Under the pieces are notes generated by a model. It was not told where the DNA came from, ran no database searches, and saw only the letters and a program-made list of their open reading frames with translations. Of a DNA stretch of 45,015 nt, positions 6,116 through 42,036 are shown in pieces. Each line of letters begins with the position of its first letter. Positions within the stretch are counted from its first letter, which is position 1. The DNA comes from Saprospiraceae bacterium (GTDB taxonomy: Bacteria; Bacteroidota; Bacteroidia; Chitinophagales; Saprospiraceae): assembly GCA_020846655.1 (NCBI GenBank), contig JADLDL010000010.1, forward strand, positions 1-45,015. The letters run 5' to 3'. The position numbers and the translations under genes are program-made.

Positions 6116-8569
6116 TTACACCTTCCTATGCCGCAGCCGCGCGGCATCCAGCCAATAAATCAGTTTCAGGGTGAGAGAATTATCCTGCGGCGCCTGCATG
6201 GTTTTACGGAAATTGCGGAAATAGCCGTCCTGCCGGATATCATCGCCGGCAAACACCGCGTCTTTCCAGATCAGGTTCAGAAAACTGCCCGGCGCAAACT
6301 GCCAGGTATACACCAGGTCAATGTTGAACAGGTTGAAATTCTCGTCGGCGTTGCCCTGCCAGTCGGAGGCGCTGAAAGAGCCGTCGTCGTTCAGGTGCAG
6401 GTATTCCAGGTAATAGAGTTTGGACCAATAATGCCGGCCGCGGATGGTGGCGCTCATGCGGGGCGTGAAGAGGTATTCGGCGGATAAAATGTTGTCGAAC
6501 ACGGTGATGCGGCGTTTGCCGAAAATAATATCATCGGGGTTCGTGTAGTTGACGGCGCCGAAGTTGGTGTAGTCTTTCGAGAGGCTCCAACTGCCCGTCA
6601 GGCGCAGGTGTTTGCTGGCGATCCAGGTCGGCGTGACGGTGAGCCCCACAAAAGCATCCTTTGGAATGGGGCTTTCGCCAAAATTGAGTTCAAAACTGCA
6701 AAACAGCCGCTTGCGCACATCAGTGGTGAGCTGCGGAGAAACAAAAACAAAGGGCGCGTGGTGGAATTTTTTGCCCCAAACACGCGGCTCGAAATAGTCG
6801 TAGTACCAAAGCGGCTGGCTAAGGGCAAACAAGGCCAGGGTCAGTTGGTTTTTCAGGCGGGTTTCGCCGTAGGCCGACAACTCGAGGGCTTCCCAGCGCC
6901 GGGGAAAATTCAGGAAGGTGTTTTCGACGGCTACTTCCACAAAGGTGAACAGGCGCTGGCCCTTGGGTTGGTAATCGCCGTAGCTGACTTTGAGCACCTG
7001 GCTCAGGAAATTGTTGCGGCGGTTGAGGCCCAGGTCGCGCTGGTCGAAGCGGTCATCTGCCGCTGCAAACTGGACCAGCCCGCTCCAGGTGCCGCTCACT
7101 TTGCGCAGCGCTACATTGTAGAAATAGCCCGTTTCGCGCTGCTGGAGTTCAAACACCTGGCTCAGTCGGCCGGCGCCTTCAAACTCGTAGGTATTGGTTT
7201 TGTCGCGCAGGTTCCAGGTCAGGGCCGACACGTTGGCGTCGCGGGTGCTGCCGGCGCGCCATACGCTGGTGTTGGTAAAACCCAGCGCCGAGTTGTTGGG
7301 CAACAACTGGTCGATCACCAGCACGTTGTAATTGCTGAGCGGCGAGGTTTCCAGCGTTCGGGTTTCGCCGGTTTGGGTGTTTTTGATCACCGCACTGGTG
7401 GGCGCAGCCAGGGCATTCAGCACGCCGATTCCGAGTTTGGACTTGGTGCGGCCCGACAGTTTGGTGGCGTTGTACAGGGGCGTGACTGAGGGATTTTTTT
7501 CCAAAATTTCCTCGTCCAGCAGGCCATCTGCCGCTGCGAAAAAGCCCTCAGGGCGGCCGCCGATCCGCCGCGAGTAGAAAATATTGCCCTTGTTGAACAA
7601 CTCCGTGCCTTCCGTAAAAAACTGCCGCCGCTCTTCGTACTGCACCTCGAAGGGCGAGAGGTTGCGCACGGTGTTGTCGCTTTGGGCTTCGCCAAAATTG
7701 GGGATCAGGGTAGCATCCAGCGTAAAACTTTCGCTCAGGCCCCATTTCACATCCACCCCACCGCTCAGGGATTGGCTGTTGGCGTATTCCACCGGCGCAG
7801 TAGACACCGGCGAGCGCTGCACGGTGCCAGCCAGGTAGGGCGAAAAGGCCAGGCGGCTGGGCGGGTCAAGTTGTTGCAGGCCGTTGAGGTCGCCCCATTG
7901 GGGCAGGGAACCGCCGCCGTTGGGGTCCACGGGGCTCCAGGTGCTGAATTCGTTGGCGTACTGGATCTGACGGGCAAATTGCAAACCCCAGACCTGGTCG
8001 GGTTTGCCCGGGAAACGCAAGGCGCTGAAGGGGATGCGCATTTCAGCGCTCCAGCCGTCGGCCTGGATTTTGACGCGGGCGTCCCAGACGGCGTCCCAGG
8101 CGGCGTCAAAAATATTGGGCGGCGACATGCGCAGGTCGCGCTGCACGCCGGACGCCGTCACCTCGAAGCGGAAGGCATTTTGCCGGTCGTGATAGGTATC
8201 AAACCCGACGTGAAACTGGTCGGCGCTGCTTGAATTATCGCGGCGGCTGAGGTCTGTGCGGATCTTGGAGGCGTCGCGCATATACAGGTAGGCGCCCACG
8301 TACACGGCTTCGTCGGTGTACACGATGCGTACTTCCGTGCGTTCGGCTGCTGCCTGGCCAAAGGTGGGGGCGAAGGTGATAAAGTTGGTGGCGGCCGGAG
8401 CCGAGTGCCAACAGGCCTCGTCGAGGGCGCCGTCGATTTTGGGCGCCGTTTCGACGCGGATGGTGTGGAGCTGCGGGCGGTTGGTATCGGTAGTAGGGCC
8501 GGGCGATTGGGCGGTGGCCCGCCCGGGCAGGAGCAGCGCCAGCAAGGGCAACAGAAGTATTGTTTTCAT
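6116..8569 (-). CDS. DUF5916 / CBM9-like outer-membrane protein
   Basis: Predicted 817-residue secreted protein with a clear signal peptide (MKTILLLPLLALLLPGRATAQ). Residues about 35-230 form the CBM9-like module (PKIDGALDEACW, YVGAYLYMRD, DQFHVGFDTYHDRQNAFRF), and the remainder is the DUF5916 region typical of large beta-barrels (FTLDATLIPNFGEAQSD, QFFTEGTELF, YSRRIGG). It is a distant paralog of the protein at 309-2522, sharing the order of modules and the blocks NPDFSQ/NPNFGEAQ and FFxExxxLF. Ligand unknown; members of this family are often annotated next to hydrolases, but no hydrolase is adjacent here. The gene ends five bases from the convergent GldN-like stop. Confidence 0.87.
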   Translation of the reverse strand: MKTILLLPLLALLLPGRATAQSPGPTTDTNRPQLHTIRVETAPKIDGALDEACWHSAPAATNFITFAPTFGQAAAERTEVRIVYTDEAVYVGAYLYMRDASKIRTDLSRRDNSSSADQFHVGFDTYHDRQNAFRFEVTASGVQRDLRMSPPNIFDAAWDAVWDARVKIQADGWSAEMRIPFSALRFPGKPDQVWGLQFARQIQYANEFSTWSPVDPNGGGSLPQWGDLNGLQQLDPPSRLAFSPYLAGTVQRSPVSTAPVEYANSQSLSGGVDVKWGLSESFTLDATLIPNFGEAQSDNTVRNLSPFEVQYEERRQFFTEGTELFNKGNIFYSRRIGGRPEGFFAAADGLLDEEILEKNPSVTPLYNATKLSGRTKSKLGIGVLNALAAPTSAVIKNTQTGETRTLETSPLSNYNVLVIDQLLPNNSALGFTNTSVWRAGSTRDANVSALTWNLRDKTNTYEFEGAGRLSQVFELQQRETGYFYNVALRKVSGTWSGLVQFAAADDRFDQRDLGLNRRNNFLSQVLKVSYGDYQPKGQRLFTFVEVAVENTFLNFPRRWEALELSAYGETRLKNQLTLALFALSQPLWYYDYFEPRVWGKKFHHAPFVFVSPQLTTDVRKRLFCSFELNFGESPIPKDAFVGLTVTPTWIASKHLRLTGSWSLSKDYTNFGAVNYTNPDDIIFGKRRITVFDNILSAEYLFTPRMSATIRGRHYWSKLYYLEYLHLNDDGSFSASDWQGNADENFNLFNIDLVYTWQFAPGSFLNLIWKDAVFAGDDIRQDGYFRNFRKTMQAPQDNSLTLKLIYWLDAARLRHRKV

Positions 8570-9448: not shown

Positions 9449-12268
9449 TTAGGTCGGCGTCAAGTTGATCAGGACGGAGTTTTGGGCAGGATTAATGATC
9501 ATGCGGTTTCGGCCACTCATGTTTTGTTTTTCCTTTTGAAACCGGATCATGCCGACGAGTTCACCCAGGCGTTTGGCATCGGGTAGTATGGGAGGGTTGC
9601 GTTTCAGGCCTTTTTTCGCGTCGGTAAACAGCGATTTTATTTCATCGCCGTTGAAGCCGCTGGTACTGTCGGCGATGACATCGATGAGTTCATTGGACAA
9701 GCCAATTTTGTATTTTTCTGCATACAGCGCCACGATGGCGCGCCGGGCGGTAGGGTCTGGGAGATCGATATGGATCGGTTTGAAGCGGCTGGGGCGGAGC
9801 AGGGCTTCGTCGATGATATCCAGGCGGTTGGTGGTGCCAATGACGAGCAGGGGGGTATCCGGGCGGAAGCCGTCCATTTCGGTAAGGATTTGGGCGACCA
9901 TGGAGTTGCCCACGCGGCTGCCGCCGTCTGGCCGGTTGGAGCGCTTGGTGGCCAGGGAGTCAAATTCATCAAAAACCAGCACGGAGGGGGCATGGCGCCG
10001 GGCTTCGGAGAAGATTTCGCGGAGTTTGCGTTCGCTTTCCCCCACGTACATATCCATGGTTTCCGGACCGGAAACGACCATGATATTGGCGTTGAGTCGG
10101 TTGGCTACAGCCTTGGCAAAGAGTGTTTTGCCGGTACCCGGTGGGCCGTAAAAAATAAATCCGCGCGGGATCAGGTCCTGAAGTGTTTCTTCTTCGTCTT
10201 CTTCAAAAACCATTTGACCCTGAATGAGTTGAATGGCTTCTTCCAATTCGCGTTTGACATCTTCATAGCCTCCGATTTGTCCAAAATCTACTTTGGGCAC
10301 CACGAAGTTGTTGGAGGCCGTGGCCTTGAAGGTCCGGATGGATTCTTTCAGGTCCTGCATCGAGATTTTTTTTCCTTTGGCGTATTCATTGATGGAATAC
10401 TGGATGCATTGGCGGACGCGGATGGGGTTCATGCCCGATACATTTCGATAGAGTTCTTCCGGGTCAAAATTATCGATACTGGCCTTTTGGCCGGGTGTTA
10501 CCAGTACATCCACCGTGAGCACTTCCTGCGCATCCACCATCGTGGTTTTGGGTATGCCGTTGATGATTTTCCGAAGGGAAAAGCGCGACTCGATAATCTC
10601 CGGCAGGTCGACCGACACGTCGGTGAACGCGAGGATCAGGCCGTCGTTTTTTCGATAGATCAGTTCGGTCAATTCCCGCGACTCCCCGCTCAGAAAGGCG
10701 CCGGTGCCGCCAGCCAGCAGATCGAGGTGGGGGATGACGAGTACTTCGTTTTCTTTGATGGATTGGATGATATTCTTCAGGTTGCGCAATTGCTCGAGGA
10801 TCAGCGAACTGCCGGCATTTCCCTGGTTGATATCGGAGGCTTCCAGCAATTTATACTTGAGTTGCGCTTTCTGGACGATGGTTTTCCATAAGGTATTGAC
10901 AATGAGTTTGTCGCATTTGATCAGGACCGACAGGCCCATCTTCAGTTCGGCGGCTACCTTTTCAATTGGTTCGCCGTAAATCAAGCGGATCGATTCTTCT
11001 TTGTCGAAGGCTTTGTGGTCGATGTTGTCGTAATGTTTGGGCTGGGGCTGGTGTTTTGGACTGCTGGGGACACTAGCGGGAGGCGTAGTGGCAACAAGGC
11101 TGTCGGGGTCTGCACTGGCTGTAGGATTGGCTTCTATTTTTTTGATGTCCAGTTTGGGGTATGTCGGGCCGGGATTATCCTTCGGCGCGGCAGGGATTGG
11201 TACGGGTTGTGCATGAAAAGAAGGTTGGACGAAATAGGGTTCCTGCAACAGCCGGATCAATTCCGTCATGAAATCTTTGTGCATCTGTTCGTGCTGAAAA
11301 TCGCCGGCAATCAACTCCCGAATGATGTACACAGCCCTCGGATACAGGTCGTGGTCAGTGGGATAGGCATACATCAGTTTGGCATGTGCCACAACAGCCA
11401 GGTTTTTGCTGAAGGCACTGATCGAAAGCCCCAGAAACATCAGGCAGAGGAACGCGGCGCCCACGATGATCAAAATATTCAGCCACCAGGCAAAATTTTT
11501 GATGTATAAAAAAATGATGCAGCCAGCGATGGCAGCCAGCATGATGAGCACCATTTGAATGTTTTTGTTCCTGATTTTTTTGCTCAGGCTTTCAAAAAAA
11601 GGCTTCAGGCTGGCCTGTACCTGGTCTTCATTGGATGTGGATTTGATGACAAAATCAAAGCTTGTTTGTTGTTGGATGACCAGCATCACCAGCAGGACGC
11701 CGATGTAGGTGTACACGAAGTAGGTGGGCCCTAAAAACCAGATATATAAAATCGGAATGGCATAGACCAGGAGCGCGCCAAAATAAACGCCGACCTTGTT
11801 GCCAATATCGTCGCCGGAAGAATAGTAAAAGGCATGTGCCAGGCAAAAAAGGCCAAAGCAGGCGATGAAAAAATGCCTGGAGTAGGATAAAAAGTAGTTG
11901 TAATCTTCTGTGTGGCCGATCCACTTGGCATAGGAAAATATACCAATATAGGTGATGGTGGCCAACAAGATGGTGGGGGCGATGAAGCGCCGGTACGAGC
12001 GGATGCTGCGCTCAAAAAAATCCGGGAAACTGTTGTTTTTTTGAGAGAGAAAAGAAGCGATCAGCCAGGGGCGCGAAAAAAAATAACCGGTCGTGAATAT
12101 CCCGGAGGAGAGTAGGGCGTAGTTGATCAGCCCCTGTGCATCGCTGTCCAGGGCTTGTTGCTGCACATACAACATGGCGGCATAGGCCGCGCCAAATACG
12201 ACAAAACCCAGCAGGAATAGTACAATGAGTTTCCTGGTTCTGCTATACAATGTGGCAACTTGATTCAT
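9449..12268 (-). CDS. Polytopic membrane protein with tandem AAA+ domains
   Basis: 939 residues from the ATG at 12268; the open frame extends upstream into the preceding gene but the N-terminal membrane segment begins here. Residues 1-295 hold about eight hydrophobic segments. A Pro-rich linker (350-425) follows, then a divergent AAA-like region (about 435-690) lacking a P-loop but keeping IKENEVLVIPHLDLL. A canonical AAA+ domain comes next: Walker A GPPGTGKT 708-715, Walker B VLVFDEFD 763-770, sensor Asn814, RPSRF arginines 825 and 828. The fold order recalls p97/Pex1-type double-ring ATPases with an inactive first ring. Last gene of the ubiquitin-like operon, 28 bases after the JAB stop. 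Inferred role: ATP-driven remodelling or extraction at the membrane of conjugated targets. Confidence 0.85.
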   Translation of the reverse strand: MNQVATLYSRTRKLIVLFLLGFVVFGAAYAAMLYVQQQALDSDAQGLINYALLSSGIFTTGYFFSRPWLIASFLSQKNNSFPDFFERSIRSYRRFIAPTILLATITYIGIFSYAKWIGHTEDYNYFLSYSRHFFIACFGLFCLAHAFYYSSGDDIGNKVGVYFGALLVYAIPILYIWFLGPTYFVYTYIGVLLVMLVIQQQTSFDFVIKSTSNEDQVQASLKPFFESLSKKIRNKNIQMVLIMLAAIAGCIIFLYIKNFAWWLNILIIVGAAFLCLMFLGLSISAFSKNLAVVAHAKLMYAYPTDHDLYPRAVYIIRELIAGDFQHEQMHKDFMTELIRLLQEPYFVQPSFHAQPVPIPAAPKDNPGPTYPKLDIKKIEANPTASADPDSLVATTPPASVPSSPKHQPQPKHYDNIDHKAFDKEESIRLIYGEPIEKVAAELKMGLSVLIKCDKLIVNTLWKTIVQKAQLKYKLLEASDINQGNAGSSLILEQLRNLKNIIQSIKENEVLVIPHLDLLAGGTGAFLSGESRELTELIYRKNDGLILAFTDVSVDLPEIIESRFSLRKIINGIPKTTMVDAQEVLTVDVLVTPGQKASIDNFDPEELYRNVSGMNPIRVRQCIQYSINEYAKGKKISMQDLKESIRTFKATASNNFVVPKVDFGQIGGYEDVKRELEEAIQLIQGQMVFEEDEEETLQDLIPRGFIFYGPPGTGKTLFAKAVANRLNANIMVVSGPETMDMYVGESERKLREIFSEARRHAPSVLVFDEFDSLATKRSNRPDGGSRVGNSMVAQILTEMDGFRPDTPLLVIGTTNRLDIIDEALLRPSRFKPIHIDLPDPTARRAIVALYAEKYKIGLSNELIDVIADSTSGFNGDEIKSLFTDAKKGLKRNPPILPDAKRLGELVGMIRFQKEKQNMSGRNRMIINPAQNSVLINLTPT

Positions 12269-12296
12269 AGGAGGTTCTGTTGTTTTCAAATAGACT

Positions 12297-13259
12297 TTAA
12301 ATAACCCAGTATTGCTGCTCGTACATATCGCGTTGCCCATCCGTCCGGACATAAAACCGGAGCAGGCGGCTGCCGTCGTTTTCAAAATTAATCAAGCCGG
12401 CTACCTGCCAAATATTTAAAAATGTAGTATTGTGCAGTTGAAGATCCACTCTCGACAGGCCAATATCCAAGGCATCCGCCGAGAACAGATGGGTATGATA
12501 CCAGCCCAGTATTTTCTCCTCCGGGCGTTGTTCCCGGATCAGTTTTTTCACTTGTGCAAAAGATTCGCCGGTAAAGTTGAGGTGAGAAAACGAAGCGCCG
12601 AAATGCTCGGCATTGATCGCATCCCGGATTTCAATGATAAACCCGTTTGGCCGGTTTTCATTGGCGTATACCATGCCAATAAAAAAACCTCCTTCTTCAT
12701 AATGGTTGGAAAACATGCGGGTTTTGACCAGATTCCGGTAGATATCCTGGTGGATCAGGATGCTGATCAGGGGTTCTTGCTCCGGGGCGGCGGCCATGAA
12801 GGCGCTCAGAGACCTTCGGGGATAATGGTCCTCTTCTAGCCGGGTTATTTTCAGGTTGTTCTGCCAACTGTTCGTTGTGTTCAGCGTAAACTCGCCCTCA
12901 ATGTTCGGCCGCCGCACCCGGGCGGCTTCTTTTTCCAGCGGATCCGGGTCGGTGCTGATGATAATCAGGCTGTCGTGGGGAATATAGTCGGCCGGTAACA
13001 GGTCGAGCAGGGGGTGGTTTTGTTTATACATTTCCTGGTTGTCGGCATTTAAAATCAACACCTCAAAACTGGAGTCCAGGCTCAGTTTGCTCCGCCGGCT
13101 TCTGAAAAAGGTTTTTTTATCGATCAACGACGTGAGCCGCACGGTCATCTCATCGAGCGGCAACTGAGTAAGCCGTTCAATGCCTTTTTTCAAGGCTTGC
13201 GCCAAAACCGAATCTTTCAGTTCCACTTTGAATGTATCGAGTCCGAAAAACATCTGCAT
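12297..13259 (-). CDS. JAB/JAMM (MPN) isopeptidase with N-terminal unknown domain
   Basis: 320-residue predicted zinc metalloprotease that would remove ubiquitin-like modifiers. The C-terminal half (about 160-310) carries the MPN/JAMM signature: Glu188 or Glu189 in EEGGFFIGMVY, then GWYHTHL with His255 and His257, then SRVD with Ser269 and Asp272. The H-x-H to Asp spacing is 14 residues, four more than the ten typical of Rpn11/CSN5, so a loop insertion is likely. Residues 1-135 are an unassigned alpha/beta region (SFEVLILNADN, DSLIIISTDPDP). The start may equally be Met3. It begins 19 bases after the E2-fusion stop and precedes the ATPase, consistent with one transcript. It pairs naturally with the E1 and E2 upstream. 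Confidence 0.85.
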   Translation of the reverse strand: MQMFFGLDTFKVELKDSVLAQALKKGIERLTQLPLDEMTVRLTSLIDKKTFFRSRRSKLSLDSSFEVLILNADNQEMYKQNHPLLDLLPADYIPHDSLIIISTDPDPLEKEAARVRRPNIEGEFTLNTTNSWQNNLKITRLEEDHYPRRSLSAFMAAAPEQEPLISILIHQDIYRNLVKTRMFSNHYEEGGFFIGMVYANENRPNGFIIEIRDAINAEHFGASFSHLNFTGESFAQVKKLIREQRPEEKILGWYHTHLFSADALDIGLSRVDLQLHNTTFLNIWQVAGLINFENDGSRLLRFYVRTDGQRDMYEQQYWVI

Positions 13260-13278
13260 AGGTTCAATTGATCAATGG

Positions 13279-14718
13279 CTAAACGACCCTGCTCATTTTC
13301 AGGTTGGGGAAATACAGCGTATTGAGGTAATCTTCATTTTCCTTTCGGGCGGCTTCCAAGCCCCCTCTTGCGGTGATAGCAGTTTGCCCTTCTACTGTTT
13401 TCACCCATCGCAGGGCATCCGGATTGAGGCCTTCCCGGATTTGGTAGTTCTGGTAGGAGGCAATGTCGATGAGCAATTGGCACAATTGTCCGAAGTCCAT
13501 ACCGGGGCGGTAGCGGTCGGCCAGTTCACCGAGGCATACCCCCCCGCCGAATCGTTCGCCATTGCGGATACGTTGTGGCTCTACATTGGGATGAAAAATA
13601 GGGGATACCCAAGTGACCTCCGGAGCGCGCAAGGGGAAATATTCCGATAGAAAAATATTGACTTCGTGCTCCTGAATAGGTATAGGCGGCATAGCAGCAT
13701 TGGGGGCCGGGGCCCAGCCGGGCGCCAAAAAGGAAAGGTAGTACTCGGTAGGGGCCTGCTGGCTGTTGGCTTTGACCTGAAAACCTGCATGGCTTTTGGC
13801 AAAGTTGAGGATTTGCACCCGCACCCGCGCCAATGCCTCCGCCCGGATAATCGGGTTGATGTTGGCGGCAGTGCTCTCCGGGCTCACCTGAAAACCTTCG
13901 CCTTCCCGCACCCCCATCTCATTCAGCGTGCGATCGGGGTTGGCCACCCGCTCGGTAGCGCCGTTGGCGCCTACGCGGTCGATGACGGCTTGGCGGGGCC
14001 GGTCGCGGGCGTCCCGGGGCCAGGTCTCCTGGTATTGTGCCATCATGGCGTTGGCGACGTCGCGCACCGGCGTAGAAGCCGGGATATTGGACAACATAAA
14101 CCGGGCATGGTCCGGGCCTTCGATAAAGATATTGTCCAGCAAGTAATCGCGCTGGCCCTCGCTACCCAGGATGACCTGTGTAGGCGGGTTCACCTGTGCC
14201 CGCAGGCGTTGGGCCAGGGCAGCGGCCTGGCGGGCATTTCCGTTCACCAGGTAAAAGGAAAAGATACCGTTGGAAATATAGTTCAGCATCACTTCCTGGC
14301 CGCCGGTGGTTTCTGCCGACAGGGTTTGCATCAGTTGGTTGAGCTCGTCCTGGCCGCCCGGCCAACCAATCACGACGAGGTTGGTGCCGGTTTCGGGCAG
14401 GGGCGGCGTGGCGGCTTGTGGCCGAAACTGGCTAAAAAACGCATTTTTGGGATAGCGGCGGATGGTGGCATCGATCAAAGGGCCGTAGTCGGGATCGATC
14501 ACACCCGCTTCGATATCGCGGCAGATGCTTCGCCAGAAATCAGCAGACTGGTTAAACCCTGGCAGGCGTTCGCGCGGATAGTTGATACTGTCCAAAATAG
14601 GCAAGGCTTCTTCCCGTGTGCTGAACAACCGGGCCAATTGATCAATGATCCCTTCGCGCTCCAGGTCACTATAAGACAAAGCGGAAGGCATCTGGTTTCT
14701 TTGATTTTCACGCTGCAT
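13279..14718 (-). CDS. EAD1 - unknown - ubiquitin-like - E2 (UBC) fusion protein
   Basis: 479 residues from the chosen ATG at 14718; starts at 14784 and 14691 are also possible. Residues 16-92 are an effector-associated domain 1 (LARLFSTREEALPILDSINY, ADFWRSICRDIEAG, IRRYPKN). Residues 112-195 are an unassigned alpha/beta module. Residues 196-280 look ubiquitin-like (HARFMLSNIPASTPVRDVANAM, then RTLNEMGVREGEGFQV), with no diglycine. Residues 291-440 are an E2 fold: FPLRAPEVTWVSPIFHPNV, catalytic Cys395 in GGGVCLG, then LLIDIA and LNPDALRWV. The HPN-to-Cys gap is longer than in eukaryotic E2s. It presumably accepts a modifier from the adjacent E1. EAD1 is shared with the TIR protein of the same operon, suggesting homotypic docking. 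Confidence 0.85.
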   Translation of the reverse strand: MQRENQRNQMPSALSYSDLEREGIIDQLARLFSTREEALPILDSINYPRERLPGFNQSADFWRSICRDIEAGVIDPDYGPLIDATIRRYPKNAFFSQFRPQAATPPLPETGTNLVVIGWPGGQDELNQLMQTLSAETTGGQEVMLNYISNGIFSFYLVNGNARQAAALAQRLRAQVNPPTQVILGSEGQRDYLLDNIFIEGPDHARFMLSNIPASTPVRDVANAMMAQYQETWPRDARDRPRQAVIDRVGANGATERVANPDRTLNEMGVREGEGFQVSPESTAANINPIIRAEALARVRVQILNFAKSHAGFQVKANSQQAPTEYYLSFLAPGWAPAPNAAMPPIPIQEHEVNIFLSEYFPLRAPEVTWVSPIFHPNVEPQRIRNGERFGGGVCLGELADRYRPGMDFGQLCQLLIDIASYQNYQIREGLNPDALRWVKTVEGQTAITARGGLEAARKENEDYLNTLYFPNLKMSRVV

Positions 14719-14802
14719 TTGAACAAGCCAATTAAAATGAAAAGGAAAATATCGCGGGTTTAGTGCATTTTTCAAGGTAAGCAACGCCGCTTGGGAGAAG
14801 CG

Positions 14803-15894
14803 TTAACGCCTGTGCGCTGTTGTATCGAACGGACCAGATAATGCAATCCACGTAAAGCCCTCCGCTGTTTCTACGCCCAGTATTTCCCGTTCCGGAATAC
14901 CAATCTCCAAAAGCCGTAAATGGCCTGGTATATCTTCCAGGTGTTGTGTGTGGGTGTATTGGACATCGCCGCCACACTCCGGACAAATATCGAATATCTT
15001 TTCTGCATTCCAAATTGCTTTTTTGTACGCACAAGCCGAGCAATACACAGTTTCCCAAACGGCATTCCACAGCCAGACACGGCTGTCAGGACTCAGTTCT
15101 GACAACAATTCCTGTATGGTATGCCGGTTAGAGACAGCAATCTGTTGTACGTTGCCTATGGGCATGTGTAGCGGACAATCCGGATTTCGGTGCACCGAAA
15201 CCAGGTCTGTAGCCCCTGTGATCGCATTGAACCGGAAGATACCTGCCGGGCAGGACAGCCGGAGCAAAAAACGGAGTGCAAAGGAGGTGCCCCAGGCGGC
15301 GGCTAAGGCGGTGGTATGTATAGCCGCTCCTACCGCTACTTCTTCTTCCGGCGCCCGGCAACTGGCCTGGGTATCGGCCTGCAGCCGGTCGGGAGGCAGG
15401 CTGCAAGCATAGCAGGCTGCTTCCGGATCGGTATACAAGCGGACTTCTCCTCCCCAGGGATGGGTACCAATATCCAGGTAAGGCGAGCGCACCAGGTTGC
15501 AGCGGCCGGTGACGTCGAGCCGGGCATTCAGGTTGTCGACGCAAGCGATCAACAAGGATGCCTCCTGTAACTCGGCCAAGCCCAGCACCCGGGCAAAATA
15601 CCCTTGCCGGGCATCGATCACGACGCTGGGGTTGAGCTCGATTAAGCGTTCGGCGGCCACCTCAACCTTGAACCGACCTACATCATTTTGCCGAAACAGG
15701 ATGCAGCGGCTCAGGTTGGAGTATGAAATGGTGTCAAAATCGCAGAGAACCAATTTGCCCACACCGGCCATCGCCAAACTACGGGCGACTTCATTCCCGA
15801 CTGCCCCCAGGCCGGCGATCACCACCGTTGCTGCCTGAAGAGTTGCCTGTTTCCAGCCTGGAATCAGGTCGTGCCGGCTATATCTATCGTCCAT
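14803..15894 (-). CDS. E1-like ubiquitin-activating enzyme (ThiF/MoeB family)
   Basis: 363 residues. Family role: adenylate the C terminus of a ubiquitin-like protein and hold it as a thioester. Visible elements: nucleotide motif GLGAVG 28-33, Asp52 and Asp54 in LCDFDTISYSNLSR with Asn60 and Arg63, Lys76, Asp120-Asn121, and Cys179 in SCRAPEEEVAVGAA at the MoeB/ThiF catalytic-cysteine position. CYAC 161-164 matches the MoeB zinc knuckle, and two further CxxC pairs (285/288, 304/307) form a C-terminal zinc ribbon absent from minimal ThiF. The start overlaps the upstream RING-like stop by 11 bases. Not fused to an E2, unlike the Cap2 protein of type II CBASS. Confidence 0.9.
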   Translation of the reverse strand: MDDRYSRHDLIPGWKQATLQAATVVIAGLGAVGNEVARSLAMAGVGKLVLCDFDTISYSNLSRCILFRQNDVGRFKVEVAAERLIELNPSVVIDARQGYFARVLGLAELQEASLLIACVDNLNARLDVTGRCNLVRSPYLDIGTHPWGGEVRLYTDPEAACYACSLPPDRLQADTQASCRAPEEEVAVGAAIHTTALAAAWGTSFALRFLLRLSCPAGIFRFNAITGATDLVSVHRNPDCPLHMPIGNVQQIAVSNRHTIQELLSELSPDSRVWLWNAVWETVYCSACAYKKAIWNAEKIFDICPECGGDVQYTHTQHLEDIPGHLRLLEIGIPEREILGVETAEGFTWIALSGPFDTTAHRR

Positions 15895-16456
15895 ATTTCA
15901 CCAGGGATGAAGTAGCCGGGCAATACAATTGGTCCTGGTTGGAATTCCATTCGCCCCAGCAATTCAGGCCTTTAAACGGGTCCCAATGGATCGATACAAA
16001 ACACTTGGGCGATTCCGGATGGCAAGGACAGAGCACTACAATATCGTTCTGGCGCAGGGTGTGGCCGCAAATGGCGCATTTGTGGCGTTTCAAGCCGGCC
16101 AAGGGCGGCGCCAGCAAGGTATGTCCTTCCCGTAGCACCTCAATGGGGATGTTGGCGGGCGGAGGATAGGTCGTGACAATACCCAGGTTAAACTCCAGGA
16201 TGTCTTCCGGGTTGAAGTTGGACTCGCCTTCCTGTTTGCCGCTGCACGCCAGCCGGGTGCTGTTGTGGTACACTTTGCCGTCGGTTTCAATAAAAACCGG
16301 GTCGCCATTGCGAAAACTGTGGTTACAACGCTCACATTCGGTATGCAACCAGGAAGAATCAAGACTCGTAATGGCGGCGCCGCCTTTTAAATAGGCCGAA
16401 TTGGAAGGGTCTTTCGCAGCGTTTAACCCTTCATCAAACAATGCTTTTTCATTCAT
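15884..16456 (-). CDS. Protein with two RING-like zinc fingers, candidate E3
   Basis: 190 residues with two similar treble-clef-type cysteine clusters. The first is Cys41-x2-Cys44, RNGDPVF, His64, Cys71. The second is Cys127-x2-Cys130, RQNDIVV, Cys143-x-Cys145-His146, Cys152, His157, Cys166, with Cys179 as a possible last ligand. The C-x2-C ... (G/N)D-x-V ... C/H layout is that of RING-like fingers, and the position between the TIR gene and the E1 suggests an E3 ligase or substrate adaptor. The spacing of the second cluster deviates from classical RING (C152-x4-H157). The start overlaps the TIR stop by four bases (ATGA), implying translational coupling. The zinc fingers are clear; the E3 role is inferred. 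Confidence 0.75.
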   Translation of the reverse strand: MNEKALFDEGLNAAKDPSNSAYLKGGAAITSLDSSWLHTECERCNHSFRNGDPVFIETDGKVYHNSTRLACSGKQEGESNFNPEDILEFNLGIVTTYPPPANIPIEVLREGHTLLAPPLAGLKRHKCAICGHTLRQNDIVVLCPCHPESPKCFVSIHWDPFKGLNCWGEWNSNQDQLYCPATSSLVKYGR

Positions 16457-17175
16457 AGGGATTGGATCGTGCGTTGAATGCTCTCGCGAAGGCGTTGGAA
16501 GGCATCCGCGTCGTCTGCTTGTTTAAACGTAATGTAATGAAATTGTTTAAACAAAGGCGGCAATTCGTGTTGCGCCGGGTTAAAGTCTGGCAGTACCACC
16601 GGCACCAGGCACTCTTTTTTTTGTGTATATAATTCCAGTGCCGCGTTAAACTGATAAATGCCCCAAGGAGCGATGCCCTTTCCTCCAATGAATATTGCCA
16701 CACTGGCACAATTGGACAGGGCCTGGCCAATTGCCTGGGCTAACGTTTGGCCCGGCGGAATGTCTCTCTTGACAAACCAGGGCCTGATACCGGCTTCCAC
16801 CAATTGTCCAACAATCCGACCGACAACATCCTGGTCCCAACTGTTGTACGAAATAAACACATCGAAGCGGTCTGTTGCCGGCGGCTGCGGCGGCACCCCT
16901 GCTGGGGCTACAGCTACTTTTTTACCCCTGTCTTGCAGAATTTTGTTGTATGGATACCGCTCCTGTGCTTTTTCAAGCAGCCGGCTCATGCCTGGGTCCA
17001 GAAGGCCACTGTCCAATTCCTGCTGGATATGCCGCCAGTACTCGAATGGGGTCATACCGCTAAAGGGCGGGCGAACTGTGCCTTTTTCTATCCCAATGGC
17101 ATCCAGCAAATGTGTAGCCGCCGCTTCTGTGGAGAAGAGTTTCGATATTTCTTTCAATACTACATTATCCGGCAT
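16453..17175 (-). CDS. EAD1-TIR protein
   Basis: 240 residues from the ATG at 17175, chosen because EAD1 homology begins at once; an in-frame start at 17277 would add 34 residues. Residues 1-80 are EAD1 (KLFSTEAAATHLLDAIGI, FEYWRHIQQELDSG, ERYPYN), like the N terminus of the E2 fusion. Residues 103-240 are a TIR domain: DVFISYNSWDQDVVGRI, GIRPWFVKRDIPPG, LSNCASVAIFIGG, APWGIYQFNAALEL. In TIR NADases a glutamate usually sits four residues after this Trp; here it is Gln175, so catalysis is doubtful. First gene of the six-gene operon. A GACATTTG box at 17233-17240 resembles a -7 element but has no clear -33 partner. Confidence 0.85.
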   Translation of the reverse strand: MPDNVVLKEISKLFSTEAAATHLLDAIGIEKGTVRPPFSGMTPFEYWRHIQQELDSGLLDPGMSRLLEKAQERYPYNKILQDRGKKVAVAPAGVPPQPPATDRFDVFISYNSWDQDVVGRIVGQLVEAGIRPWFVKRDIPPGQTLAQAIGQALSNCASVAIFIGGKGIAPWGIYQFNAALELYTQKKECLVPVVLPDFNPAQHELPPLFKQFHYITFKQADDADAFQRLRESIQRTIQSL

Positions 17176-28683: not shown

Positions 28684-29685
28684 TTATTCAAAGTCAATTT
28701 CGGTGTTGTCGCCGATGTTCAGGCTCAGGTTCATGCCCTTGATGGAGGCGTCGCTACCGATGACGGAATGTTTGAGCACGGCATCGTCCAGCGCGGCGAA
28801 ATTGCCGATAATGCTGTCTTTTACGATGGAATAATTGATGGTCACATTTTGGCCAATGGTCACGTGGGGGCCGATGATGCTGTTGGAGATCCGGCAATTG
28901 GCGCCGATGGAGACCGGATGGATGATGATGGTATTGTCAAAATTGGGCAGGCTGAACTCGTCGGTTGCGTAGCCTCTCTGGCTGAGCAACATGGCGTTGG
29001 TTTCGAGGAGGACTTCCTTGCGGCCGCAATCGAACCAGTTGTTGACCGGCAAGGCTTGAAAATGGGTGCCTTGTTCGAGCATGTATTGCAAGGCGTCGGT
29101 CAGTTGAATTTCACCCACGGTGCGCTGGTTGCTTTGCATCAGGTGTTCGACGGCCCGAATGAGTGCCCGCACTTCTTTTACCTTGTACAAGCCGACAATG
29201 GCCATGTTGGATTTGGGGATCCGGGGTTTTTCGATCAGGCGGGTGACGTTGCCTTGTTCATCGAATTCGGCCACGCCGAATTCGCGCGGGTCATTGACTT
29301 TCTTCACCCCGATGCAGGAATGCGGGCAGTTGAGCATTTGAGCCAGGTCGGCATCGAAAATGGTATCGCCGAAAGCGATAAAAATCTCGTCTTCGTCCTC
29401 GATGGCTTCGTGGGCGGTCCATACGGCGTGCCCGGAGCCTTCGCGGTGTTCCTGGTATACGAATTCGGTTTGGAGATGCGGGTAGCGGTGTTCGATAAAA
29501 TCGCGCACTTTTTCGCCGAGATAACCAATCACAAACACAAAGTCGGTCAGGCCGGCTTCTGCTAATTTGTCGATGATAAAACAGATGATGGGTTTGCCGG
29601 CTACCGGCATCAGCGGTTTAGGCTGTGTGTACGTATGGGGGCGAAGGCGGGTGCCGGCGCCCGCGACAGGGATAACAACTTTCAT
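28684..29685 (-). CDS. Sugar-1-phosphate nucleotidyltransferase with left-handed beta-helix tail
   Basis: 333 residues. N-terminal NTP-transferase fold with signature VAGAGTRLRPHTYTQPKPL (residues 6-24) and the sugar-binding lysine region EKPRIPKSNMAIVGLYKV. Residues about 235-330 are hexapeptide repeats (ISNSIIGPHVTIGQNVTI, SIIGNFAALDDAVLKHSVIG) of a left-handed beta-helix. It most likely makes dTDP- or UDP-glucose, or a related NDP-sugar, for envelope polysaccharide. Specificity between RmlA-like, UGP-like and GlmU-like enzymes cannot be settled by eye, and no sugar pathway genes are adjacent. Confidence 0.85.
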   Translation of the reverse strand: MKVVIPVAGAGTRLRPHTYTQPKPLMPVAGKPIICFIIDKLAEAGLTDFVFVIGYLGEKVRDFIEHRYPHLQTEFVYQEHREGSGHAVWTAHEAIEDEDEIFIAFGDTIFDADLAQMLNCPHSCIGVKKVNDPREFGVAEFDEQGNVTRLIEKPRIPKSNMAIVGLYKVKEVRALIRAVEHLMQSNQRTVGEIQLTDALQYMLEQGTHFQALPVNNWFDCGRKEVLLETNAMLLSQRGYATDEFSLPNFDNTIIIHPVSIGANCRISNSIIGPHVTIGQNVTINYSIVKDSIIGNFAALDDAVLKHSVIGSDASIKGMNLSLNIGDNTEIDFE

Positions 29686-38056: not shown

Positions 38057-38120
38057 TTTGGATGTACAACTGTGCAAAACCACTTGCTTCACCTGCGTTT
38101 TGCACAGTTGTACATTCAAA
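38057..38120. repeat. 24-bp inverted repeat upstream of sensor kinase
   Basis: Left arm 38057-38080 and right arm 38097-38120 are reverse complements over 24 positions with one G-T mismatch, around a 16-base spacer. The core is TGTACAACTGTGCAAAAC. As RNA it makes a very stable hairpin (G-U at the one mismatch); as DNA it could be an operator. The half-site ACAGTTGTA comes close to the LytTR-type box [TA][AC][CA]GTTN[AG][TG]. Confidence 0.9.
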
Positions 38121-38181
38121 TGCCAGGGTTATGAAATTCGGGTTCGTTTTTACTGGGGAACTGCTACCTTTTCAGGACAAA

Positions 38182-41100
38182 ATGAATCGGATACGTTTAT
38201 ATGGGCTTCTGTTTTTGGCCGGATGGCGCTTGTTGCTACCCGCCCAAACACCTGCCTACATGCACTATACGGTACGCGACGGGCTCCCGGGCAACCTGGT
38301 GTATTGTGGCTTGCAGGATCAGCGCGGCTTGCTTTGGTTTGGGACCGACAAAGGGCTGGCTTGTTTCGACGGTACCCGATTTCATGTGTACGGCGTAGCC
38401 GATGGTTTGCCTGATCCGGAGGTGCTGGGTATTCAGGAGGATCGTAAGGGCCGGATCTGGTTGTCTTGTTTTCGAAAAAAGCCGTGTTATATCCTCAACG
38501 GACGCATTTTTACGGAAAAAAATGATAGCCTGCTGGCGCAAATTGATTTTGATACCGGCACCTATTTGATTTCGGAAAACGAAGAAGAGCAGGGGATTTG
38601 GTTCACCGAACTGAGCGAAAGGGCCTACTATTCGGAAGACCAAACCTTGCGCGCCTATTCATTCCCCAATGCGATCGTTTCGCTCCACCGCTTTGGCCCG
38701 GATCTGATTATCCTGGGCAAGTTTAATATCATGCGGTTGTTGCCCAATGGTCAGGTGGAGGAGATCTGCCGCTTGCCGGATTTGATCCAGGGTTTGTATT
38801 CGCGAAAACTACCCAGCATTGTGTACAATACGAACGGGAGGGCCGACACGGTCCAGACCGTTTGCTTTCAATCGGTAGCCGTTTCTGGCAACCGGATTTT
38901 GTACACCTACTGCAACCGGACCTTTCTGCTGGAATACAGCCAGGGGCAAATTCAGGTACTCGATATCCAAACCAACCTCAACGGGCCAATATCCGTTGAC
39001 CGGAGCGGCCGCTTCTGGATCTGTTCTCAGGTGGCCGGTGCGGTGTCGTTTGTGCAAGACAACCAAAACATCAGGTATCCAACCGCCTATTTGCCGGATA
39101 AAAAACTGCATTGGGTGTTCGAAGACAAACAGGGCACCCTTTGGTTTTGTACCACCAATGACGGAATTTATGCCCTGTATAAGCAGGCGCCGGTTATTTA
39201 CCAGGCGCAGGCACAAATGCAATCGCTCAACATTCGGTCCATCGCCCAATCGCCGGAGGGACAAATTTTAGCCGGCGACGACGCCGGATTTGTGCATGTG
39301 ATTGAAAACGGTAAGTATCTAAAATCGGTCACGACCGGCGCCATAGACGGGTATAATTTCGTCCGGCAAATTTTACCGGAAAACCAGCACCAATTCTGGG
39401 TGGTTTCGGACGATGGGTTTGGGTTGTACCAAGCCGACGGCCCCCTTCCTCCCGACTATTGGGTGACCAACAGTATGAAAGCCATTACCTTGCTGCGGGA
39501 TACCGTTTGGTACGCCAGTGCTTCGAATGTCGGCTATCTGGTGAAATCCAATTTGGAGCACCACAACGTAGAGGGGGTGCGCACAACCGCTATTTTTACC
39601 GACCATGAAAACATGATTTGGTTGGGCAAAGTGGATGGCTTATACTCCCGTCAGGATAATTTTACCTACAACTGGGGAGACCGTTTTCCGGCGTTAAAAA
39701 ACAGGATTATTGCCATCAAGCAGGCCCGGAAAAACGAATTATGGATCGTAACGCCGGAAAGTGGTTTGCTCAAAATCAGGGTAAAAGGAGGTAAGGTACT
39801 CAGCCTGGAGCACTTGAATGCCCAGTTGGCCAGCCCAATTATCAACATCCAGTCGCTGTATGTGGAGCCCAACAGCCGGGTTTGGATGGCCACCAACAAA
39901 GGGGTATACGGCCTGGATACCCTGGGCCAGGTGGTCCAGTACTCGACGTATGACGGCTTGGCGGATGACGATGTAAACGCTGTGTTCGTGTCGGGCGATA
40001 CGCTTTGGGCGGGCACCGTTTCGGGGCTTACCCGGATGGCCTTGAAAGTACCGAAACACCCGGGACAATTTAATACCCTGGTGGTAGCGCTCCATTATCA
40101 ACGATTCAGGGAGCATGTTGACCTGCGCCTGCTGGATTCCCTACCGCAGCACCGGAGCATTGTTTTGCCGCCGGATATTACCAACCTGGAGTTTGAATTG
40201 GCCGGGCTGGATTTTCTCAGCCGGGCCAACCTGCGTTTTGAGGTCGTGCAAACCGAATTGTTGCCGCCCTTTTGGGACTGGACCTTCAACAACCTCAGCC
40301 ATTGGGTGCTCAGCGGGTTCTCCGGGGCTTCGGATACCAGTTGGCACCAGTCGGCCTCTCTGAACCTGGGTACGTATTTGCCGCCGGGGAAATACCGTTT
40401 TCGGGTGACCGCCATCAATGCTACCGGGGCTAGAAGTCCGTTTCCGGATACCTGGACCCTGATCAAACAGCCATATTGGTACGAAACGGTTTGGCTTTAC
40501 CTGACGCTCTGGTGCCTCTTGGGCTATGGTTTCTGGCGGATGTATCGGGCGCGCATTGCGTATCGGGAGATCAATGCGGCGGCTTCTGTCCTGCAATTGC
40601 AGGCCTTGCAGGCACAAATGAACCCGCATTTTATCGGGAATGCCATCAATGCCATTCAGCAGTTCCTGCACCCTCCCGATCCGGAGCGCACCAGCGAGTA
40701 CATTGCCGTGTTCATGCGCTTGCTGCGGCGAACGATGCATTTTTCTGAAAAAACGTTTGTTGCGTTTGCCGAAGAACTCTCCTACAACCGGGAGTACCTT
40801 CAGTTGATTCACCTGCGGTTCGAAGACCGTTTTCAGTATACCATTACCGGGGCGGAACACATCCCGCCGGACACGCCGGTGCCCTCCATGATTTTGCAGC
40901 CTGTTTTGGAAAATGCCACCTTGCATGGTATTGCGCCGGAAGGCCAGTCGGTGTTGCATTTGGAATTCAAAGTGGAAGGGGATCATTTTCGGTGTGTGCT
41001 GACCGACAACGGTATCGGGCTGAAAGAAACCCAGCGCCAGAAACGCCTGGCCGGCATTGAGCGCGAATCGAAAGGCCTGCACATGCTGCAAAAGAAAATC

Positions 41101-41280
41101 AGCACCCTCAACCGGCTGTACGACCTGGATTTGAGCCTGGAGGTACAAGACCTGGCCGACTTGCAGTTGCCGCAGTCCGGCACCCGGGTAGTCCTGCGAT
41201 ATTGTTTGAGTAAAATATGGAAAGCAACAGAAAAACATCCCAGCCCACCGACACCGAACCCCTCGGTATTCGGGTTTTGA
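38182..41280 (+). CDS. LytS-type sensor histidine kinase with Reg_prop propeller
   Basis: 1032 residues from the ATG at 38182, chosen because it opens on a signal peptide (LYGLLFLAGWRLLLPAQ); the frame upstream runs into the inverted repeat. Periplasmic part: two-component-propeller repeats (YTVRDGLPGNLV, GLLWFGTDKGLACFDG, VFEDKQGTLWFCTTNDGIY), then a Y_Y_Y-like domain (about 665-765), one membrane helix (about 770-790), and a LytS-class kinase with QMNPHFIGNAINAI (His816 presumed phosphoacceptor) and an ATPase end (DNGIGL, GLHMLQKKI). It senses an unknown extracytoplasmic cue. The response regulator gene overlaps its last 64 bases. The second kinase at 42785 is a close paralog. Confidence 0.9.
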   Translation: MNRIRLYGLLFLAGWRLLLPAQTPAYMHYTVRDGLPGNLVYCGLQDQRGLLWFGTDKGLACFDGTRFHVYGVADGLPDPEVLGIQEDRKGRIWLSCFRKKPCYILNGRIFTEKNDSLLAQIDFDTGTYLISENEEEQGIWFTELSERAYYSEDQTLRAYSFPNAIVSLHRFGPDLIILGKFNIMRLLPNGQVEEICRLPDLIQGLYSRKLPSIVYNTNGRADTVQTVCFQSVAVSGNRILYTYCNRTFLLEYSQGQIQVLDIQTNLNGPISVDRSGRFWICSQVAGAVSFVQDNQNIRYPTAYLPDKKLHWVFEDKQGTLWFCTTNDGIYALYKQAPVIYQAQAQMQSLNIRSIAQSPEGQILAGDDAGFVHVIENGKYLKSVTTGAIDGYNFVRQILPENQHQFWVVSDDGFGLYQADGPLPPDYWVTNSMKAITLLRDTVWYASASNVGYLVKSNLEHHNVEGVRTTAIFTDHENMIWLGKVDGLYSRQDNFTYNWGDRFPALKNRIIAIKQARKNELWIVTPESGLLKIRVKGGKVLSLEHLNAQLASPIINIQSLYVEPNSRVWMATNKGVYGLDTLGQVVQYSTYDGLADDDVNAVFVSGDTLWAGTVSGLTRMALKVPKHPGQFNTLVVALHYQRFREHVDLRLLDSLPQHRSIVLPPDITNLEFELAGLDFLSRANLRFEVVQTELLPPFWDWTFNNLSHWVLSGFSGASDTSWHQSASLNLGTYLPPGKYRFRVTAINATGARSPFPDTWTLIKQPYWYETVWLYLTLWCLLGYGFWRMYRARIAYREINAAASVLQLQALQAQMNPHFIGNAINAIQQFLHPPDPERTSEYIAVFMRLLRRTMHFSEKTFVAFAEELSYNREYLQLIHLRFEDRFQYTITGAEHIPPDTPVPSMILQPVLENATLHGIAPEGQSVLHLEFKVEGDHFRCVLTDNGIGLKETQRQKRLAGIERESKGLHMLQKKISTLNRLYDLDLSLEVQDLADLQLPQSGTRVVLRYCLSKIWKATEKHPSPPTPNPSVFGF

Positions 41281-42035
41281 TTGTGGACGACGAAATCGGG
41301 GCGATCAACACCTTGCGGGGTATGCTTCGGCAATATTGTCCGGAAGTACTCATCAGCGGCACGGCGTCTTCGGTGCGCGAGGCGATCGCGGCGGCGGTGC
41401 AGTTGCGCCCCGACCTGGTGTTTCTCGACATCGAGATGCCGCCGGTGGGTAGTGGGTTTGACTTTTTGAAAAATTGTCCGGAAACGGGGTTTGGGGTCAT
41501 TTTCACGACGGCTTACCCGCAATACGCCATTCAGGCGATCAATGTGATTCAGCCTTGGGCGTATTTGGTGAAGCCCTACAGTGTTTCGGAATTGAAAGCG
41601 GCTGTGCAAACGGCCTACCAGAAACTGCGGCAGCAGCACTGGCATGCGGTGCAGGCGGCTGGGCAGCGGAGCATCATTGTGCCCGACAGCCGCAAGGGCA
41701 CCCAGGTATTGCGGGCGGAAGACATTGCGTTTTGCAAGGCCGACGGCAGTTTCACGCAACTCCATGTAGTCAAGCAACAAAAACTGGAGAAGATAACTTC
41801 TTCGCGCAACCTGGGCGAGTTTGAGACGGAGTTGCCGGAGTTGTTGTTTTGCCGGACGCACCATAGTTTTCTGGTGAACCTCCGGTATGTGGAGCGGTTT
41901 GAGCGCACGGGCCGCAACGGCATGATTCACTTGTCCTGTTCGCCGGTGCCGGTGGATGTGTCGGTGGCCAAGATGGATGTTTTTGTGTCGCGGCTGGAGG
42001 AGTTTTGTCAGTTGAGGGCGTTTGACGAGGGGTGA
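41217..42035 (+). CDS. LytTR-type response regulator
   Basis: 272 residues. Receiver domain 19-135 with IVDDE and the phospho-Asp in LVFLDIEMPPVGSGFDFL, then TTAYPQYAIQAINVIQPWAYLVKPY. C-terminal LytTR DNA-binding domain (EDIAFCKADGSFTQLHVV, LFCRTHHSFLVNLRYVERF). It overlaps the kinase gene by 64 bases, an unusually long overlap; the start may be later (a Met is not available until within the receiver, so 41217 is kept). LytTR proteins bind paired direct repeats. The stop is one base from the convergent stop of the paralogous regulator. Confidence 0.92.
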   Translation: MESNRKTSQPTDTEPLGIRVLIVDDEIGAINTLRGMLRQYCPEVLISGTASSVREAIAAAVQLRPDLVFLDIEMPPVGSGFDFLKNCPETGFGVIFTTAYPQYAIQAINVIQPWAYLVKPYSVSELKAAVQTAYQKLRQQHWHAVQAAGQRSIIVPDSRKGTQVLRAEDIAFCKADGSFTQLHVVKQQKLEKITSSRNLGEFETELPELLFCRTHHSFLVNLRYVERFERTGRNGMIHLSCSPVPVDVSVAKMDVFVSRLEEFCQLRAFDEG

Positions 42036-42036
42036 A

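What the first reader, a model, noticed from the sequence alone, without database searches (positions are those of the whole stretch)
9449..17175. Six-gene operon joining EAD1-TIR, RING-like fingers, E1, EAD1-Ubl-E2, JAB and membrane AAA+
Sequence shows six minus-strand genes spaced or overlapped by -11 to +84 bases with hallmark motifs of every step of a ubiquitin-like pathway: E1 (GLGAVG, Cys179), E2 (HPNV, Cys395), two RING-like clusters, JAMM H-x-H...S-x-x-D, AAA+ Walker A/B. Known: bacterial E1/E2/JAB operons include CBASS Cap2/Cap3 and Bil/Bub-type systems, and EAD1 domains mark conflict systems. Inference: a defence or signalling system in which TIR and E2 proteins dock by EAD1, modify a target, and an ATPase at the membrane acts on the product. 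I do not know this exact combination as a characterised system.
Basis: partly seen in the sequence, partly recalled or inferred. Interest (0 to 1): 0.97.

Follow-up and report, generated by a model that had tools for sequence, protein, structure and literature searches.

The report
Bacterial ubiquitin-like operon with TIR effector
A six-gene bacterial operon encodes a complete ubiquitin-like tagging pathway plus a matching TIR effector and a membrane-anchored ATPase; it is a stripped-down relative of a predicted but, as far as found, experimentally untested bacterial conflict system.

Summary
I found 14 relatives in 13 actinobacterial genomes. Twelve of 14 keep RING, E1, EAD1-Ubl-E2 and JAB in the window's order; all 12 with the AAA+ gene in view have MoxR after it. 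Catalytic residues are kept in every row with letters. The window departs: no MoxR, vWA or fvmX gene recognised on its contig, a multi-pass membrane domain on the AAA+ protein, a TIR with Gln in the catalytic-Glu column (Glu in 8 of 8 others), and a host I infer to be Bacteroidota. No second copy turned up in three samples of its phylum. A standalone EAD1-Ubl elsewhere stops where the fused proteins read A-(G/A), marking the likely Ubl C-terminus: Gly in 10 of 15, Ala in 5 including the window. Most likely the Ubl carries EAD1 onto targets, EAD1-TIR clusters there, JAB processes, and the membrane AAA+ remodels. Enzyme identities are well supported except the RING fold; the mechanism is inferred. 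New variant of a known, untested kind.

The parts
16453..17175 (-). EAD1-TIR protein, 240 aa
   Evidence: Pfam EAD1 5.2e-7 (res. 7-85), TIR_2 8e-22 (106-229); best PDB sequence hits are the human adaptor TIRAP
16651..16653 (-). Codon (CAG, Gln175) in the alignment column of the TIR catalytic Glu
   Evidence: Glu in 8 of 8 other aligned TIRs; codon
15884..16456 (-). RING-like candidate E3, 190 aa: N-terminal C/C/H/C cluster plus C-terminal CxxC-x12-CxC-x6-C-x4-H-x8-C-x12-C
   Evidence: C-terminal ligands in 12 of 12 homologues; N-terminal C41, C44, H64 in 11 of 12 (one gap), C71 in 10 of 12; Prok-RING_1 only 0.011; homologous to L008
14803..15894 (-). E1 (ThiF-type adenylation domain, Cys179) with C-terminal zinc ribbon, 363 aa
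   Evidence: Pfam ThiF 3.1e-41; MoeB 2.9e-30 with a 2-row profile; Cys179 in 13 of 13
13279..14718 (-). EAD1-Ubl-E2 protein, 479 aa (470 aa if started at 14691)
   Evidence: EAD1 8.3e-9 and UQ_con 2e-5 (sub-threshold); PDB E2s 1.3e-5 with the 8-row profile; weak Ubl-fold matches; YukD in the L008 homologue (1.6e-5, just below cut-off)
13864..13866 (-). Ala276 codon (GCC): last residue of the predicted Ubl at the Ubl/E2 junction (Gly in 10 of 14 homologues, Ala in 4)
   Evidence: standalone Ubl of L064 stops here
12297..13259 (-). JAB/JAMM metalloprotease, 320 aa
   Evidence: Pfam JAB 1.9e-4 (just below cut-off), fvmJAB_N 0.055; JAMM residues in 13 of 13; archaeal Rpn11-like 6fjv E 0.0046 with the 5-row profile
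9449..12268 (-). AAA+ protein, 939 aa: N-terminal multi-pass membrane domain (7 hydrophobic peaks), AAA1 without Walker A, active CDC48/FtsH-type AAA2, no protease domain recognised
   Evidence: Pfam AAA 1e-42; CDC48 2.7e-57 and FtsH 3.7e-51, both below the curated cut-offs; hydropathy; AAA1 rows

Best explanation
The operon is a MoxR-less, membrane-anchored relative of the Ubl-type FtsH ternary conflict systems. Shown by sequence: E1, RING-like protein, EAD1-Ubl-E2, JAB, EAD1-effector, dead+live AAA+. Inferred mechanism: JAB (or processing in cis) exposes the Ubl C-terminus at the A-(G/A) junction; E1 adenylates it and passes it through Cys179 to E2 Cys386; the RING-like protein directs it to a target. 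Because EAD1 sits upstream of the Ubl, conjugation plants an EAD1 docking flag on the target, and EAD1-TIR gathers there by EAD1-EAD1 contact. The membrane AAA+ then unfolds, extracts or disassembles the tagged complex, taking over the remodelling role that MoxR(-vWA) shares elsewhere. Since the TIR has Gln in the catalytic-Glu column, its output is more likely scaffold/assembly than NAD cleavage.
For: Same predicted architecture in Kaur et al. 2020. RING-E1-Ubl-E2-JAB in one order in 12 of 14 actinobacterial loci, followed by AAA+ in all 11 of those 12 where it is in view, plus L061; in L062 and L065 an EAD1 gene lies between E1 and E2. Exactly two EAD1 matches in each of the two genomes searched, both in this operon. 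Enzyme residues conserved. Standalone EAD1-Ubl ending ATAG in L064. The EAD1 partner is CHAT in 9 loci and TIR in L065. Seven hydrophobic peaks before AAA1 in the window; none in 11 of 12 relatives and one in L113. TIR Gln at the catalytic column.
Against: No experiment; no known target; no close relative of the window version, so its recurrence is untested. The Ubl ends in Ala, not Gly, here, which may slow or prevent activation and deconjugation. AF2 models were poor for the E2 part and the RING protein. No defence genes recognised nearby. The genome holds five places over the bpMoxR cut-off, best on C121 (341 bits), so MoxR help in trans is possible; vWA was not searched genome-wide.
Confidence: 0.5

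Rival explanations
1. The Ubl is not released: EAD1-Ubl-E2 stays one polypeptide and the Ubl/E1/E2 part is an assembly scaffold or self-modifies, while JAB acts on something else.
For: Ubl and E2 fused in 13 of 14 actinobacterial loci and the window; junction Gly replaced by Ala in 5 of 15; L108-L111 with Ala keep full operons.
Against: E1 Cys, E2 Cys/HPN and JAMM are kept in every row with letters, which a scaffold would not need; only Gly or Ala occurs, preceded by Ala in 15 of 15; natural split at that place in L064.
Confidence: 0.2
2. A membrane protein quality-control pathway (ubiquitin/CDC48-like extraction) rather than a defence system.
For: AAA2 scores best with CDC48/PAN/FtsH models; membrane domain; TIR without the catalytic Glu; no defence or mobile gene recognised on the contig by Pfam.
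Against: An EAD1 protein with CHAT (9 loci) or TIR (1, plus a TIR fragment in L061) accompanies the core in the relatives, as in conflict systems; patchy distribution, with no match in the 8 genus-mates searched with the E2. PADLOC also gives IetA 2.6e-30 for AAA2, though CDC48 scores higher.
Confidence: 0.15
3. A degenerating copy: it lost MoxR, X1 and X2, the TIR lost its Glu and the Ubl its Gly.
For: Codons at both positions are one base from Glu and Gly codons; partner genes missing; long branch 1.16.
Against: All six frames are intact and the E1/E2/JAMM/Walker residues kept at 25-46% identity; Ala at the junction also occurs in four full systems; the AAA+ carries an extra membrane domain.
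Confidence: 0.12
4. A Bil, Bub or CBASS Cap2/Cap3 type system.
For: Shares E1, E2, Ubl and JAB; PADLOC E1-E2 and BilD models match the E1 adenylation domain.
Against: Those matches cover only part of the models; E1 is a single ThiF domain and not fused to the E2; E2 has HPN; no CD-NTase recognised; the closest relatives found are FtsH-ternary loci. No tree against Bil or Bub was made.
Confidence: 0.03

Closest known systems
FtsH ternary systems, complex (Ubl) variant, Kaur et al. 2020 eLife PMC7159879 (sections 21, 30, 31 read in full, other passages)
   Same: Separate JAB, E1 and RING genes, EAD1-Ubl-E2 fusion, EAD1-effector, AAA+ with dead first and live second domain; same gene order as the relatives found here, 25-46% identity
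   Different: No MoxR, vWA, fvmX1 or fvmX2 recognised in the operon; AAA+ carries a membrane domain; effector TIR with Gln, not caspase-like; inferred Bacteroidota host rather than the delta/actino/planctomycete hosts named there
TERNS3 systems with EAD1-Ubl and E2, Kaur et al. 2021 eLife PMC8195603 (section 6 read; passages)
   Same: E1 with Ubl and E2 components carrying EAD1; TIR is a common partner
   Different: Built on MoxR-vWA-TERNS3; no RING, JAB or FtsH-type AAA+ named for the Ubl set in that section. L064 here, with Ubl apart from E2, may belong to this kind
BilABCD (passages in PMC11354881)
   Same: Ubl, E1, E2 and JAB protease in one operon
   Different: BilD has two adenylation domains, BilB a CEHH motif; the passages name no RING, EAD1, TIR or AAA+ in the operon
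Bub operons (passages in PMC13373217; primary papers seen only in its reference list)
   Same: Bacterial ubiquitination-like operons of uncertain role
   Different: Gene content not compared here
CBASS Cap2/Cap3 (recalled)
   Same: E1, E2 and JAB activities
   Different: Cap2 fuses E1 and E2 and acts on a CD-NTase; none recognised here

Membership tests
FtsH ternary system, Ubl variant | EAD1-Ubl-E2 fusion protein | tested here: met
   Ubl: YukD match in L008, weak fold match
FtsH ternary system, Ubl variant | Separate E1 and JAB genes | tested here: met
FtsH ternary system, Ubl variant | Separate prokaryotic RING-type E3 | tested here: inconclusive
   Homologous and with eight C-terminal ligands in 12 of 12, but RING models sub-threshold, RNF24 0.47, AF2 poor
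FtsH ternary system, Ubl variant | EAD1-fused effector in the operon | tested here: met
   EAD1-TIR; elsewhere mostly EAD1-CHAT
FtsH ternary system, Ubl variant | AAA+ with inactive first and active second FtsH-type domain | tested here: met
FtsH ternary system, Ubl variant | MoxR-vWA pair in the system | tested here: not met
   Neither among the 23 other contig ORFs scanned. Elsewhere in the genome five places pass the bpMoxR cut-off; the best, on C121, lies in a beta-propeller system without EAD1. MoxR follows AAA+ in 12 of 12 relatives
FtsH ternary system, Ubl variant | fvmX1 and fvmX2 helical proteins | tested here: not met
   fvmX1: three matches below cut-off, best E 0.19; fvmX2: no match (the control genomes gave none either, but the model scores 261 bits in L008)
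TIR NADase | Catalytic Glu (role recalled) | tested here: not met
   Gln175; Glu in 8 of 8 other aligned TIRs
Bil | Two-domain E1 and CEHH E2 | tested here: not met
   Single ThiF domain, HPN E2; Bil features
CBASS with Cap2/Cap3 | CD-NTase and E1-E2 fusion | tested here: not met
   E1 and E2 are separate genes; no CD-NTase among ORFs scanned; definition recalled

The most novel reading that the evidence does not exclude
A membrane-embedded AAA+ has replaced the MoxR-vWA switch of an EAD1-Ubl conflict system, and a non-enzymatic TIR acts as an assembly scaffold. Some of these systems, this one included, use an Ala-ended Ubl, giving a lasting tag that JAB removes poorly.
Probability: 0.2. Interest if true: 0.8.

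Novelty: new variant of a known kind. Interest (0 to 1): 0.55.

Why it matters
It suggests that the Ubl-EAD1 part of the predicted FtsH ternary systems can stand without MoxR-vWA beside it, so six genes may suffice to test the whole idea. The standalone Ubl in a relative gives a concrete C-terminus, making Ubl release and conjugation directly testable. The membrane AAA+ would be an intriguing bacterial parallel to ubiquitin-dependent extraction by CDC48/p97.

Tried and rejected
Idea dropped: that the window alone had lost the Ubl Gly. The first 6 relatives all had Gly, but 8 more loci showed Ala in 4, so Ala is recurrent. Idea dropped: TIR as an unheard-of effector for this core; L065 carries EAD1-TIR and L061 a TIR fragment 93% identical to it, on whose ORF no EAD1 was seen.

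Searches that led nowhere: viral contigs with the E2 profile (13 stretches matched, none confirmed); plasmids with the window E2, plasmids and phages with the L008 E2: no match. The genome-contig scan gave one confirmed locus from 41 stretches; its method finds close relatives only, and later profile searches found more. Samples of the window's phylum, order and class (296, 298 and 395 genomes, partly the same ones) gave no second copy. Weak hits (G180; seven genomes) look like other E2s, some beside E1- or Ubl-like genes, judged by eye and not counted. Eleven of the 16 genomes matched only over EAD1 and were dropped from the locus count.

AF2 models (2-row alignments): E2 protein mean pLDDT 48.7, only EAD1 confident; RING protein 39.2. 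The Foldseek Ubl matches (two with E below 0.001; TM-score by query about 0.2) rest on a stretch with block pLDDT of about 41-66, so are weak support.

TIR alignment: 6 of the 7 plasmid hits were fetched (H26 was not), plus L065 and L043.

Neighbourhood: in 3 of 5 genus-mates fetched (G1340, G1332, G1323) the orthologue of 6116-8569 lies beside that of 28684-29685; in the other two (G1334, G1341) that neighbour was not seen. In the window they are 20 kb apart with order changed. The operon is thus in a variable stretch; no clean empty site was defined.

Faulty step: two of the query proteins (AAA+ of L061, TIR of L065) were out of frame with stops taken out, and the hydropathy of L061 was out of frame too. 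Searches (AAA+; both, and hydropathy of all 12) replace them; no count changed.

Not in print: I found no MoxR-less, membrane-AAA version and no experiment on this kind in searches (open-licence papers only). Kaur et al. mention a related Ubl system coupled to Pup conjugation, so a MoxR-less relative may already be known.
Full report
What is there. The window is one whole contig (C10, 45,015 bases) of a 6.4 Mb, 398-contig genome. No tool named the organism; I infer Bacteroidota from a Por_Secre_tail and GldM domains on the contig. Six minus-strand genes at 9449-17175 follow one another with gaps of -4, -11, +84, +19 and +28 bases. In order of transcription: EAD1-TIR, a 190-aa zinc protein, E1, EAD1-Ubl-E2, JAB, AAA+. 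Pfam supports EAD1 twice, TIR_2, ThiF and AAA above cut-off; E2 and JAB just below.

What it is related to. One scan of the genome-contig collection with the E2 protein gave a single confirmed relative, L008 in a Streptosporangiaceae MAG. Its operon reads EAD1-CHAT, RING-like, E1, EAD1-Ubl-E2, JAB, fvmX1, AAA+, bpMoxR, fvmX2, with fvmX7 further on. The fvmX names stand for FtsH ternary system domains. Those systems were described by Kaur et al. 2020 (PMC7159879; sections 21, 30 and 31 read, plus passages). Their complex variant has separate JAB, E1 and RING genes, an EAD1-Ubl-E2 protein, an EAD1-effector that is typically caspase-like, and an AAA+ with a dead and a live FtsH domain. The window has each of those parts, with TIR as the effector; the MoxR-vWA pair is what it lacks.

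Wider set. A profile of the two E2 proteins found Ubl-E2 in 5 of 394 genomes of L008's class (16 of 394 matched, 11 of them over EAD1 only), and an 8-row profile in 9 of 345 of its order, L008's genome being in both. That makes 14 loci in 13 genomes. RING, E1, Ubl-E2 and JAB run in that order in 12 of 14; in L062 and L065 an EAD1 gene stands between E1 and E2. The exceptions are L061, where RING and E1 were not seen, and L064, a dispersed set. Of the 13 loci other than L064, AAA+ follows JAB in 12, and the contig of L062 ends first; MoxR follows AAA+ in all 12. fvmX1 was seen between JAB and AAA+ in 11 of those 12 (not L063). The window's AAA+ has seven hydrophobic peaks before AAA1; 11 of 12 relatives have none and L113 has one. 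EAD1 partners, each confirmed by BLAST to the CHAT of L008 or by the TIR match: CHAT in 9 loci (L008, L107-L114; in L108-L111 about 4-5 kb from the RING gene), TIR in L065, an unassigned protein in L062, none seen in L063; L061 shows a TIR fragment.

Conservation. Over the homologues (window left out): E1 Cys179 and C161, C164, C240, H243 13 of 13; E2 HPN and Cys 13 of 14 rows, the other a gap; JAMM residues 13 of 13; the eight C-terminal ligands of the RING-like protein 12 of 12; Walker A Lys of AAA2 12 of 12, Walker B 11 of 12 with one gap; AAA1 shows no Walker A in any of the 13 rows. Identity of the window to the others: E2 28-36%, E1 38.5-43%, JAB 25-38%, AAA+ 36-46%. In a four-protein tree of 12 loci, window included, it sits on a long branch (1.16) between two actinobacterial groups, local support 1.0.

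Ubl C-terminus. In L064, on a 7.59 Mb contig, EAD1-Ubl is its own gene and ends EATAG-stop. At that place the fused proteins read A-G or A-A. Counting the window, Gly 10 of 15, Ala 5 of 15 (window, L108-L111), preceded by Ala in 15 of 15. I take this as the end of the Ubl, on one natural split. Whether an Ala end still works is open; I recall, from no call, that ubiquitin with Ala at its last residue can be conjugated but is hard to remove.

TIR. The best PDB sequence matches are the human adaptor TIRAP, which also shows Gln at the matching place. In alignments the catalytic-Glu column has Glu in 8 of 8 others and Gln in the window (the role of this Glu is recalled). Scaffold action is thus more likely than NAD cleavage.

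Departures from the known kind. Pfam recognised no MoxR, vWA or fvmX gene among the 23 other contig ORFs scanned. fvmX1 and fvmX2 are not found in the genome above cut-off (the fvmX2 control genomes were silent too, though the model scores 261 bits in L008). Five places in the genome pass the bpMoxR cut-off, the best on contig C121 among bpX0-bpX4 domains; no EAD1 lies there. Because a MoxR-vWA pair defines the ternary systems, I do not file this as a member, but as a MoxR-less relative that shares the Ubl-EAD1-FtsH part. Kaur et al. note that a subset of iSTAND systems carry TM segments and may act near the membrane, perhaps in relation to Gram-negative walls, a parallel to the membrane AAA+.

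How it may work. See Best explanation. Shown: parts, residues, gene order. Inferred: Ubl release, conjugation, EAD1-EAD1 docking (also Kaur's proposal), extraction by AAA+. Unknown: trigger and target.

Verdict. Real, coherent, and mostly anticipated by a published prediction; the reduced membrane version with Gln-TIR is new as far as my searches go. Interest 0.55.

Noticed in passing
window 9449-12268, residue 326 of the AAA+ protein: HEQMH (HExxH) between the membrane domain and AAA1; 55 of 5000 shuffles of the protein hold such a motif. Could be chance or a protease remnant.
   Followed up: partly
L027 (G000 contig C121), 8846-16489: A MoxR-vWA-beta-propeller type ternary system (bpX0-bpX4 domains, bpMoxR) in the same genome.
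   Followed up: partly
L064 14957-15922 and 8645-9337: EAD1-Ubl and E2 as separate genes, E1 beside the Ubl on the other strand, no RING/JAB/AAA+ hit in 20 kb; perhaps the TERNS3-type Ubl set.
   Followed up: partly
L066 1-4620 (Nostoc plasmid): MoxR, vWA and EAD1-containing genes in a row on a plasmid; the EAD1 protein matches the window TIR.
   Followed up: no
L029, L034; L031, L033, L035: Other clusters in genomes of the same order with small E2-like genes next to Ubl-like and, in two, E1-like genes, judged by eye.
   Followed up: no
L026 13995-17472 (Crinalium plasmid): ThiF E1, E2 and Mov34/JAB genes on a mobilizable plasmid.
   Followed up: no
window 8569-28684: In 3 of 5 genus-mates fetched the flanking genes 6116-8569 and 28684-29685 are direct neighbours; here 20 kb with the operon lies between them.
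   Followed up: partly
window 38062-44986: Two histidine kinases with Reg_prop repeats and a LytTR response regulator.
   Followed up: no
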